DNA from: Syncephalastrum monosporum B8922
Lineage: Eukaryota > Mucoromycota > Mucoromycetes > Mucorales > Syncephalastraceae
DNA: 64,000 nucleotides
Assembly: GCA_000697355.1 (NCBI GenBank)
Contig: JNEN01001278.1
Location: 1 to 64,000, forward strand
Reading direction: 5' to 3'
Below, one piece after another: positions 35,747 to 42,600 of this stretch (within the stretch, counting starts at the first letter, position 1; each line of letters opens with the position of its first letter). The position numbers were made by a program, and so were the translations under genes. Under the pieces are notes generated by a model. It saw only the letters and a program-made list of their open reading frames with translations. It was not told the origin of the DNA and made no database searches.

Positions 35747-36903
35747 TTAAGGGGGTCGTGAAAGGTGCCCAGTCGCTGCTGACGTACGGTGGCGTCGCCC
35801 AGGAGACGAGGACGACGGCTGAGGTAACGGCGGCGGGGGCTGGCTATGGTGCGCCGTGCACCGACGACGCGAGGAGTGATGGACAGCCATGGGTAGCGGG
35901 GGAGGCGCTAATGGATCCTGCCAATAGCTTGGATGGTGCGGCTGTAAATGCGGTTCCTCGGCTCCTAGCGTAGGTGGAGGCAAGGTTTTGTCAGCGTAAT
36001 AGGAGCGGATCGCTGCTTCGGAGGATAGTGAATCGGACGCCGAAGAGTTGCTCGAAATAGAGGTTGAACTATTATTATCATCCGACGCCGAAAACAGAAC
36101 CGAGAAAGATGAATTAGTTGACGCGACGGATGATGAGGAGGAGTAGCGTGCGTCGCGCAGTGATGGTAGCAGGACGTTGGGACGGCCGCTTTGGGCTACA
36201 GGAGGTGGCATAGATACACCTCCGTCAAGAGGGTGCGACAGTTGTTGCTGTTGCTGTTGCTGATGCTGTTGTGGAAAACGCGGGGGTTGCTGGTAAGGGC
36301 GACGGATGACTGAGTTGTCAAAGCGAGCCAAAGCCCCATAGAGGTCCTCGAGTGTAATCGACAGTTGAAAATCCTAATCGTGACTCAGTCAATGACACGC
36401 GCTAAGGCAAGCCTCCTGCTTTTGTTCACACACACACCCCCAACCCATGCTCCCTTTTCCTTGACCACCCCCCCTTCCGCAAATCCCCCAATCTCTGCTA
36501 CGCCCTGTACTTTTACGCGAAAGGAACAGGAAAACAGAACGAAAATTGAGAAGATCCCAGCCGCTCACGCGTAACTCAACAACTTCCGATGTGCTGTTAT
36601 CTTACCAGTAAAGCTAGCAGCTGCTTTTCCATCAAATTAATTTCTGCCACCGTGAAATAATGAGCATAGCGTGTCCAGTGACGGTTTCTCGGAGCGGTAT
36701 CGTGCAGTGCTTTAGAGGTCACGATCAACGTGGCGAGAAAAATGCGCTGGCAAGTGCAAGGCATGCCACGCGCAATAGGTGCGAGTCTCTCCCGGAGACG
36801 GTCGAGCAGAACCAAAACGCCAAGCAAGGTGCCCGGACTCGTTGACGATCGTCGCACAAGGAAATTGACAAAAGTTGGTAAAGGTGGTATCGATGGCTGT
36901 TGC

Positions 36904-36934
<31 letters not shown>

Positions 36935-37070
36935 CTGCGGGTGAAGCTGACTGGCAAGGGATGACAAGCGATGTTTGGTGTGCTATGTGCGCGAGAAACG
37001 ACACGGCGGTCGGACGGTCAATGAAGTCCAGTAGGCGACGGTGCTGCGGGTCTTCAGCGAGTGCAGCCAT
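35747..37070 (-). CDS. PCL/PHO80-type cyclin
   Basis: Exon 1 is 36606-37070 and exon 2 is 35747-36373, giving 363 aa. The cyclin box shows the family's typical run: FVNFLVRRSSTSPGTLLGVL, LDRLRERL, ARGMPCTCQRIFLATLIVTS, HWTRYAHYFTVAEINLMEKQ. The junction then reads LLALLDFQLSITLEDL. This is the pattern of fungal Pcl1/Pcl2/Pcl9-like cyclins that partner the Pho85-type CDK in G1 control, polarity and metabolism. A 12-residue poly-Gln loop interrupts the N-terminal part (about residues 47-58). The C-terminal 190 residues are Ser/Pro/Gln-rich and disordered, with many SP sites. The two exons join in phase at the predicted donor (gtaaga) and acceptor (attag). It is divergent from the CENP-M-like gene. 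Confidence 0.9.
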
Positions 37071-37956
37071 TTGCTTTTTAACGTAGGAGAAGAAAGGAAG
37101 AGAGAAACAAAATGGAGAAAGAAAGAAAAGGTTTTTGGTGATGGCGCCCGTGCGTCTCCCTTTATTTTCTAACGGAAAAAAATTGGCGGGCAACGGTAGA
37201 AAGGGAGTTTTGCTTTGGTTCAAGGTGGTCCCTATTCAAATCCCTGTTGTGAGCTTGCTACTTACACCTCTACGCGCGCACACACACACACACACACACA
37301 GATACATACATAATACACACAAGCACACAGCATACAATGGCACACACGCACTTATTTCTCCGGGCAACTCAAAGGTTAAGATTATGCGGCGTATACGCTA
37401 CCCCTGCTTTGGGGTCATTGCGCGCAGACTCCCCTTCTCTCACGGGGACCAGTGATTTGTTCCGCTTGCTTCGAATCCTTTACTATACCATGCGCGCAGT
37501 ATGGAGTTGAAGTCGGGGGACATATACGGATCAGTTGGATGCGTTGGTAACACTTCTGCGCTTTGTTGTTATCTCGAATCGACCCGAAGACGGAAAAATA
37601 GATCGGATGTCTTCAGCCGAAGCTCCGTCGTTCGCGTCGGCCCTCGACGCAGTCGTAGCGCACGCAAAAGTCTAGATCGGCGCCGTGCAGGTAGCACGCG
37701 TATAACCGGCGCGCCACATGATGAGCGCTGCACTCCAACATGCGACTCTGAGAGTTATTACGATGGGGATATGTAATCCTGTACATTGCATGTAAATGTA
37801 TATATAATATCTATACTTTCATGGACTTTTTCGGCTGAGAAAGATTCATTGTTGTACCGACAGCTTGGAAATTCGCCACTTTTTCAACACTGATCACGCG
37901 TCAAACACTGCCCTAGCAAGCAAAGCGAAAAAAAAAAAAAAGCCGTAACGCTTGGC
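37071..37956. other. Divergent intergenic region with CA microsatellite
   Basis: A (CA)n stretch at about 37276-37301 is followed by further CA-rich sequence to about 37330. The interval should hold the promoters of the cyclin (minus) and the CENP-M-like gene (plus). ORF 37501-37776 on plus is Ser/Arg-rich with no motif and is not called. Confidence 0.5.
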
Positions 37957-38741
37957 ATGCAGAGGCCCATTTACACGCAGAGGCCTGCTGATCTTCTTGT
38001 AAGGACTCATTGCTTCCTTTTTTCTGTTTAATGACCCTTTACAAAAGATTGTCGGTTCAGTTAGTAGTGGAAAACGAACTCTGGCGAGTCGGTTACTCGA
38101 ATGGAGTGACACTTATATTTCAGTGTAATCCGGAGCATACTCCACTTGACAATAGTCAGCTCATGCTTGTTTTAGACATACATCCGAAGTATTGCCTCGT
38201 GACGCAACGCTCGATCGTAAAGACTGCATTGTTTATCTTGCTGATCTCACTGATTCCGCATGCTGGAAATCTCTGGAAACATCCCTACAATATGAAGTAC
38301 CGCGTTACATGTACGACAAAACCATCATTGTTTTCACCAACAGTACGTCTTTGTTGTTCCATCTATCAAAGCTAATGTCTATGTATCCATGTGCAGTGAA
38401 CAAGATTGACCAATATGCCATATTTCCGGATGTCCTGCAGGAGCGGCTACAGGAATACTATGACTTCCCCATCTTTTTCGCTGATTTCGAGGTGAATTCG
38501 AACACAAGCAGCAACTTATCGATAAGTATATTAATAAAAAGAGGTTTTCTGTTAGGACGAGACTATCTTGAAAGAAGTGAGCCAGCAGGTAGCCCGATTT
38601 GTACGCATTGCGGCACTGCAGCATTCGGAGGTGACGATGACTCTTTTGCGTACATTAGAACACCATGAAGTGCCTATCACGACGGATTATCGCTCGTTTG
38701 AGTCATTGTCCCGTCTGTCAGCTGCAGCAGATGAGGAATAG
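37957..38741 (+). CDS. CENP-M-like kinetochore protein (small-GTPase-fold)
   Basis: I reconstruct five exons: 37957-37998, 38048-38105, 38160-38342, 38397-38491 and 38556-38741, giving 187 aa (human CENP-M is 180). The start MQRPIYTQRPADLLIVGS parallels the first beta-strand of CENP-M. SSGKRTLASRLLEW then replaces the P-loop. DCIVYLADLTD corresponds to the strand DLIVFVVNLH. TIIVFTN is followed, across a junction, by DQYAIFPDV, and YYDFPIFFADFE matches the region YQSPLLYCDLE. The C-terminal helix VSQQVARFVRIAAL comes last. CENP-M is a GTP-binding-incompetent member of the inner-kinetochore CENP-H/I/K/M module. The intron 2 boundaries (38106-38159) are my choice among alternatives. The other junctions fit good gt/ag sites. 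Coding potential is invisible to single-ORF views because all exons are short. Confidence 0.72.
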
Positions 38742-39044: not shown

Positions 39045-39586
39045 ATGAATCCACCATCCACCTCTCAGCCAAGCGACGCCCATGTGCCCCCATTAGACGA
39101 GACCTTGGAAAAAGTGTCGCAAGTAAGGCTTTGTCACTGCCTTTTTGTATTGTCCTTCACGCGTTATTCACCTTCACCTGCAGCGAGTGCGTCAGCTTGA
39201 AGCCGATGGTGAAAAGGAAGACGGCAAAAATGAACTGTCGCAGCTGATGGCCTTTCTGCGTATACTGCAGCAGCAGCAGCAGCACGTCCAGTTGATACAG
39301 CAGCAGTTTCTTCAAAACGTATCTCCTGAGCAACAGCAACAGCAGGTTCAGGCTCTGCAGCAGCACTTGCTTCAACAGGCGGGCGGTCCGCAAGGTAGAA
39401 GGGACAAAGACAGTTGACCGACTCGTTTTGCTCATATCAGTAGTGCCAGTACCAGGAGGTTTACCCTCTGCGAAAGGCATCCCCAACAACATGTTCCAGC
39501 AAATGCTCGCTTATAGCCTTTTGACCAAGAATCTTGGATCATTACCCAACCCTGCCATGGTACCCCAGCAACTACCACAGCAGCAA

Positions 39587-39621
<35 letters not shown>

Positions 39622-42600
39622 GCAGCCACTGCCACAGCAACCACAGCAACCACAGCAAGACCAGCCACAGCTCTCTCAAACGAAGCCACCGGCCGAAGAG
39701 CCTCTGCCCTCAATAGAAGAGCAACGAAGACGTCTGGGCGAAAAACTTGTGGAAGCCGTCCGCAAACAGGAGAAAGACCATCGTCTCCTGATGGGCATGA
39801 AATTTCCTGACATTCAACTTGAAAAACACTTGACCCCCATCGATTTGCTCGGTGGACAGCAACGATCACACGCGCATGCATCGCGCCAACAACGCCTCCT
39901 CCTACCTGATTTCGTGCCGGCCGGTCTGGCGCCTGCTACAGTGCGTTTGGAGCGCGACCGTCGGATAGACCAGCGTGCGCAGCTTCGACTTGAGCAACTG
40001 GAATCACATATCGAAGAAGACGACGGCCAGCCCCAGCCACAAACGCTGGGCTATCTTCTGGATCAATATTACAAGGAGACTGTCATGACTGCCTCTTCGA
40101 AACGGTTACAAGCTATCGTCGAGATAAAGTCTTTGCGACTCCGCGAAAAACAAGCCAAAGTAGGTTGACTATCCGTCGCATATACCCAACGCTAACTGCT
40201 GTGATAGCTTCGATTGGAGGTGATGAAAGGCATGGACGAAGTGAACCGGATCGCGACCTCGGTGGATAAGACCGCTTATCGTAAGCTGATCCGGCAAACA
40301 CTGCGAGAAGCCAAGATGACAGAAAAGCTGGAGCGCCAACAGCGGCAAGACCGAGAGAAACGAGAAAAACAAAAGCAGCTCGACTATCTTCAAACGGTGT
40401 GCAATCAAGGTCGGGAACTTCTTTCGTTCCATCGTGGCTATCAGGCGCGCTTGGGCAAACTAGGCAAAGCTGTCTTGCAGTACCACAGTCACGTCGACCG
40501 TGAGGAGCAGAAGCGCCTGGATCGTCGCTCCAAGGAGCGTATCCGTGCTCTGCGTGAAGACGATGAAGAGGCATACATGAAGCTGATCGATGAAGCAAAG
40601 GACACACGTCTGACCCTGCTGCTGAAGCAAACCGGTACCTACCTTGACTCGCTGACACGTGCCGTTGTGACGCAGCAAAACGACCCTGTGCATGCTTACG
40701 AAGAGGAAACAAGCGAAGAGGATTTGATGGGCGGTCCGCCCGATGAAGAGACCATGTTGACCGATGCAAACGGCAATAAGATTGATTACTTCCGCATGGC
40801 ACATCGTATTCAAGAAAAGGTTTCACAGCCCAAGATATTGAGTGGCGGAAAGCTGAAAGAGTACCAGGCAAGTTAGAGCAGAAGACCTGGTAAAATGGCG
40901 ATTTACACGTGTATTTTTATTAGATCAAGGGCCTTCAGTGGATGGTGTCCTTGTACAATAACCGACTGAACGGTATTCTGGCCGACGAAATGGGTCTGGG
41001 CAAGACGATCCAGACGATTAGTTTGATTACGTACCTCATCGAGAAGAAGAAGCAGAACGGGCCTTTCTTGATCATCGTACCTCTCTCTACCATCACAAAC
41101 TGGGACCTCGAGTTTGAAAAGTGGGCGCCTGACGTCAACAAAATTGTATATAAAGGCACACCCGAGGTCCGCAAAAGTATCCACAAAAATCGCATCAAGA
41201 ACAACGACTTCCAAGTGCTCCTGACCACGTTTGACTATGTCATCAAGGACAGGCCGCAGCTCTCCAAGATCAAATGGGTGTATATAATTATTGACGAGGG
41301 TCATCGCATGAAGAACACGCAATCCAAATTGACGATGGTTCTTCGGCAATATTATGCATCACGTTATCGTCTCATCTTGACGGGCACGCCTCTTCAGGTA
41401 AAAGGAGAAAAGTCTCCTACTCATATGATTCAATCTGTATACTAAGAAGCGAATAGAACAACCTTCCTGAGCTATGGGCCCTACTTAATTTCATTCTGCC
41501 AAAGATCTTCCACAGCGTGCAGAGCTTTGAAGAATGGTTCAATACCCCATTTTCCAATCAAGGTGTCCAGGATAAGGTTGAGTTGAACGAAGAAGAGCAG
41601 CTGCTCATTATCAAGCGTCTCCACAAGGTAAAAGACAGGCAAACCGATTAATAGAAGTCATCTCACGCTTTGTACCAGGTGCTGCGACCATTCTTGCTGA
41701 GACGTCTCAAGAAAGATGTTGAGGCCGAACTGCCCGATAAGGTCGAGCGTGTCATCAAGTGCAAGCTGTCTGCTCTACAGGCTAGACTTTATTCACAAAT
41801 GAAGCGCCACGGCATGTTATTCGCAGGTGACAGCGCCGGAAGCGGGTAAGAAAAAAGACCATATATATTATTCTGCACAACCTAAAGTCTCACTTATCGT
41901 TAGACGCACGAGCATTAAGGGCCTTAACAACACGATCATGCAGCTGCGCAAGATCTGCAACCATCCGTTCGTCTTTGAGGAAGTGGAGCGAATGGTGAAC
42001 CCATACAAGATTACCAATGAGCTCCTCTACCGCACCTCGGGTAAATTTGAGCTCTTGGATCGTTTACTCCCAAAGTTGCGGGCGACCGGACACCGGGTGA
42101 GTCCTTTCAAAAGAGAATAATTAATTTGGGTACTGATGGTTTATGCATAGGTTTTAATTTTCTTCCAAATGACACAAATCATGGATATCATGGAGGATTT
42201 CTGTCTGTTGCGGGACTATCGGCATCTGCGACTGGATGGGTCGACAAAATCAGAAGACCGATCCCGGCTATTGGAGGTGTTCAATGCACCAGACTCACCC
42301 TACTTTGTGTTCTTGTTGAGTACGCGTGCTGGTGGTCTAGGCCTGAATCTGCAGACAGCCGACACTGTTATTATCTTTGACTCTGACTGGTAAGTTTCGT
42401 ATCTTTCGAAGGTACAAAAGAAAGGCGCAAGGGTTAACGAGTGATTCGTTATCAGGAACCCGCATCAGGATCTGCAGGCGCAGGATCGTGCTCACCGTAT
42501 TGGTCAGACCAAGGAGGTGCGCATCTTCCGACTCATTACACAGAATTCGGTGGAAGAGACCATCTTGGCCCGCGCACAATACAAACTAGACATAGATGGC

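What the first reader, a model, noticed from the sequence alone, without database searches (positions are those of the whole stretch)
37957..38741. CENP-M homologue in a fungus, hidden in five short exons
Spliced reading gives 187 aa, near the human length of 180. Strand and helix order match CENP-M throughout, notably DCIVYLADLTD, TIIVFTN and PIFFADFE followed by an amphipathic helix. CENP-M is an inner-kinetochore (CCAN) subunit best studied in vertebrates; budding and fission yeast have no recognised one, as far as I recall. No ORF longer than about 160 codons marks the locus, so annotation pipelines could easily miss it.
Basis: partly seen in the sequence, partly recalled or inferred. Interest (0 to 1): 0.78.

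Follow-up and report, generated by a model that had tools for sequence, protein, structure and literature searches.

The report
CENP-M kinetochore gene in Syncephalastrum-like fungus

Summary
The gene is real and the identification is correct. Five exons (37957-38741, + strand) join to a 188-aa protein that aligns without gaps (171 of 188 identical) to a 'hypothetical protein' of Syncephalastrum racemosum already carrying Pfam PF11111. Pfam scores the window protein as CENP-M at 2.6e-12, 46.8 bits, cut-off 25. The only PDB sequences matched at E<=10 are human CENP-M. A profile of 15 mammal and bird CENP-M proteins ranked this exact exon chain first of 32,880. [quoted passage not shown] The implied novelty does not hold: reviews list CENP-M for Mucor circinelloides (PMC7729030; PMC9252888), with CENP-A and CENP-C lost. 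Mildly interesting: this protein keeps a near P-loop (GSVSSGKR) and NKID, where human CENP-M lacks the P-loop GK and NKxD; a P-loop in distant CENP-M was noted in 2014 (PMC4080450).

The parts
37957..37998 (+). CENP-M exon 1 (MQRPIYTQRPADLL)
   Evidence: gapless to P0001
37999..38047 (+). intron 1, 49 nt, GTAAGG...CAAAAG
38048..38124 (+). exon 2, includes P-loop-like GSVSSGKR
38125..38175 (+). intron 2, 51 nt, GTAATC...TTTTAG
   Evidence: junction residues YISVHTSE match P0001
38176..38342 (+). exon 3, DCIVYLADLTD and TIIVFTN strands
38343..38396 (+). intron 3, 54 nt, GTACGT...GTGCAG
38397..38491 (+). exon 4, NKID and PIFFADFE
38492..38555 (+). intron 4, 64 nt, GTGAAT...TGTTAG
38556..38741 (+). 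exon 5 with stop TAG; C-terminal helices

Best explanation
A nuclear gene, found at one locus only, of a Mucorales fungus close to Syncephalastrum racemosum that encodes CENP-M, the small pseudo-GTPase subunit of the inner kinetochore. By analogy with the human protein it binds and stabilises CENP-I within the CENP-H/I/K/M complex, which in Mucorales would support a CENP-T-based kinetochore without CENP-A and CENP-C. Shown here: gene, exon chain, family, candidate partners in the genome; fold by a model of the S. racemosum orthologue. Inferred: binding to CENP-I, localisation, function.
Against: Identity to human CENP-M is only 20-23% (of P0001). The two human residues whose joint mutation breaks CENP-I binding, L94 and L163 (PMC4080450 passage), align to Y86 and M155: hydrophobic but not identical. 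The usable structure model was made with 15 vertebrate CENP-M rows, which favours the CENP-M result; the model without an alignment failed (pLDDT 43.2). The exon-wise PF11111 search of the genome found nothing. CENP-H stays below its cut-off. No transcript data.
Confidence: 0.95

Rival explanations
1. An ordinary Rab/Ras-type small GTPase or other P-loop protein that merely resembles CENP-M.
For: Near P-loop GSVSSGKR and NKID in the sequence; weak GTP_EFTU match 0.011, below cut-off; Rab folds follow CENP-M in the fold search.
Against: CENP-M is the only Pfam family over its cut-off and the only PDB sequence match. No DxxG is possible: the protein has two glycines, at 17 and 22, both in the P-loop-like stretch. 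The stretch between strand 1 and the strand DCIVYLADLTD aligns with that of human CENP-M with gaps of one and two residues.
Confidence: 0.02
2. CENP-M by descent that now does a different job, or a decaying gene.
For: Function not tested; CENP-I contact residues not identical.
Against: Frame open over five exons and 171 of 188 residues kept between two species; matches to CENP-H, -I and -K in the same genome.
Confidence: 0.03

Closest known systems
S. racemosum hypothetical protein BCR43DRAFT_485215 (P0001)
   Same: 188 aa, 171 of 188 identical, no gaps; PF11111
   Different: Called hypothetical protein, not CENP-M, in the names listed; about 9% of residues differ
CENP-M of Mucor circinelloides (Navarro-Mendoza et al. 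2019, not held; known here only from passages of PMC7729030 and PMC9252888)
   Same: Same family name, same order, same CCAN setting without CENP-A and CENP-C
Human CENP-M (PDB 4p0t, 4wau, 7pkn)
   Same: Small-GTPase-like fold; 180 against 188 residues
   Different: 20-23% identity to P0001; human lacks the GK of the P-loop and the NKxD; this protein has a longer C-terminal tail

Membership tests
CENP-M (PF11111) | Score over the Pfam gathering cut-off along nearly the whole model | tested here: met
   46.8 bits v 25; profile 16-171 of 174
CENP-M (PF11111) | Closest to CENP-M rather than to true GTPases by sequence | tested here: met
CENP-M (PF11111) | CENP-M fold, closer than to Rab/Ras | tested here: met
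   on a model of P0001 made with CENP-M rows, so only supportive
CENP-M (PF11111) | DxxG of switch II lost | tested here: met
   Glycines only at 17 and 22
CENP-M (PF11111) | Partners CENP-I and CENP-K in the same genome | tested here: met
   Both over cut-off
CENP-M (PF11111) | Partner CENP-H in the same genome | tested here: inconclusive
   Two collinear matches, both below cut-off
CENP-M (PF11111) | CENP-I contact residues (human L94, L163) | tested here: inconclusive
   Y86 and M155 in alignment A1
CENP-M (PF11111) | Binds CENP-I and sits at kinetochores | not testable with these tools
   needs wet experiments
Active small GTPase (Ras/Rab) | P-loop GX4GK[S/T] | tested here: not met
   GSVSSGKR at 17-24: R in place of S/T
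Active small GTPase (Ras/Rab) | DxxG (switch II) | tested here: not met
   No glycine after residue 22
Active small GTPase (Ras/Rab) | [N/T]KxD | tested here: met
   NKID at 97-100

The most novel reading that the evidence does not exclude
Syncephalastrum CENP-M may be an intermediate between a working GTPase and the vertebrate pseudo-GTPase: it keeps the P-loop lysine and the guanine-specificity motif NKxD and might still bind a guanine nucleotide without switching or hydrolysis, serving as a structural cofactor in a kinetochore without CENP-A.
Probability: 0.12. Interest if true: 0.5.

Novelty: new member of a known kind. Interest (0 to 1): 0.25.

Why it matters
It gives an exon-level model of CENP-M in a second Syncephalastrum-like genome together with candidate partners. 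[quoted passage not shown] the second paper itself lists CENP-M for Mucor. The NKID and near P-loop make it a useful sequence for asking when CENP-M lost nucleotide binding.

Tried and rejected
Exon model with a 33-nt intron 2 (194 aa) and the 187-aa model: rejected. The 188-aa chain fits the S. racemosum protein best and the vertebrate profile best (introns of 40-80 nt only, so the 33-nt model was not among the chains), and the Pfam score rises from 37.3 (194-aa draft) to 46.8 bits.

Limits of the chain test: start and stop were fixed at 37957 and 38741, introns 40-80 nt, at most five. One search scored only the first 20,000 of 32,880 chains; one search scored all against P0001, and 32,857 of 32,880 got a score from the vertebrate profile. 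The 15 profile rows were aligned together with P0001 (A2) before P0001 was taken out, and come from the listing of a search seeded with fungal and human sequence.

PF11111 against the own genome, exon by exon: nothing at E<=1, though the gene is there; probably the exons are too short for it.

Other fungal CENP-M proteins were sought: the 187-aa model found only P0001 (1 of 136 candidates), P0001 residues 54-157 found only itself (1 of 7). The profile search reported 498 at E<=1 and listed 120. Among the 119 besides P0001, every row that names an organism is a mammal or bird; rows from source lgn alone name none; the 378 not listed were not seen. So the spread of CENP-M in fungi was not measured here. 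15 of the 119 were used in A2.

CENP-N (best E 0.073) and CENP-Q (0.033) gave only matches below cut-off. CENP-C_C: none at E<=1, but the search is blind to introns, so absence is not shown. CENP-T_C: 6 matches, 5 of them at places that also match histones. Some CENP-I and CENP-H matches have a stop inside the open frame scanned, as expected where a frame runs into an intron, but I did not build those genes. Histones: 17 matches; H3 aligned against all 17 loci marks four H3 genes, two intronless and identical, two split by introns and canonical; the other loci do not match H3 at E<=1 except where a flank holds one of the four. A very divergent CENP-A is not excluded.

AlphaFold without alignment: pLDDT 43.2, not used.

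Papers: six searches, listings only except the following, of which I saw passages: PMC4080450, PMC5579357 (no CENP-M or CenpM in the main text; figures and supplements not seen), PMC12925627, PMC7729030, PMC9252888, PMC6326798, PMC7377519. Navarro-Mendoza et al. 2019 is not held; its content is taken from the two reviews. One listed paper holds both Syncephalastrum and kinetochore; its title is on basidiomycete kinesins.

Full report
What is there. On the + strand at 37957-38741 five exons (37957-37998, 38048-38124, 38176-38342, 38397-38491, 38556-38741) join to 567 nt coding for 188 aa and a stop; the four introns are 49, 51, 54 and 64 nt, all GT-AG.

How sure is the exon chain. A protein search found one relative, the 188-aa S. 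racemosum hypothetical protein BCR43DRAFT_485215 (P0001). It aligns without gaps across all four junctions, with 171 of 188 residues identical. I listed every open GT-AG chain between the fixed start and stop with introns of 40-80 nt and at most five introns: 32,880. Against a profile of 15 mammal and bird CENP-M proteins (P0001 removed from the alignment), this chain comes first with 44.3 bits; the best of 2000 shuffles of its protein has 6.7. Against P0001 the same chain comes first too. So two references, one fungal and one vertebrate, choose the same chain.

Setting. The three matches of P0001 in the genome are all exons of this gene. The genome also has matches to CENP-I (two collinear, over cut-off), CENP-K (over cut-off), CENP-H (two collinear, below cut-off) and CENP-T_C (over cut-off, at a place without a histone match). 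CENP-C_C gave nothing at E<=1 and the four H3 genes found are canonical. This fits what is reviewed for Mucorales: CENP-A, -C and -QU missing (PMC7729030 passage), CENP-H/I/K/M, -L/N, -O/P and -T/W/S/X identified in Mucor circinelloides (PMC9252888 passage). My searches for CENP-N and CENP-Q gave only sub-cut-off matches.

How it most likely works. In humans CENP-M is a pseudo-GTPase that binds CENP-I and stabilises the HIKM complex (PMC4080450 passages). The same role is inferred here. The two mutated human contact residues correspond to Y86 and M155, so the contact is plausible but not shown.

Motifs. The P-loop-like GSVSSGKR keeps both G and the K but has R where the Mg-binding S/T is expected; DxxG is absent; NKID is intact. 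In the alignment human CENP-M keeps the first G only and has no NKxD; its DxxG region is called highly divergent (PMC4080450). The same paper already noted that distant CENP-M members keep a P-loop. Weak nucleotide binding is possible but unproven.

Novelty. Basilico et al. [quoted passage not shown] Later CENP-M was tabulated for Mucor circinelloides and named in its CCAN, though the latter review also calls it lost in fungi. The S. racemosum orthologue already carries the Pfam domain. Hence a correct identification, a new member of a known kind, low surprise.

Noticed in passing
window 40208-41445 (+): Downstream gene has HSA and SNF2 domains (4.6e-19 and 1.2e-59), so an SNF2-type chromatin remodeller; glutamine-rich reading frames precede it at about 39200-39700.
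   Followed up: partly
window 36597-37235 (-): Upstream frame on the other strand has a cyclin N-terminal domain (7.3e-7).
   Followed up: partly
L023 and L024 (own genome C137 and C61): Two histone H3 genes split by several introns that differ slightly (S to T, R to K, S to A) from the two identical intronless H3 genes; perhaps replacement-type H3.
   Followed up: partly
PMC9252888 (literature, not the window): The same review lists CENP-M in Mucor circinelloides and later says CENP-M is lost in fungi (passages).
   Followed up: yes
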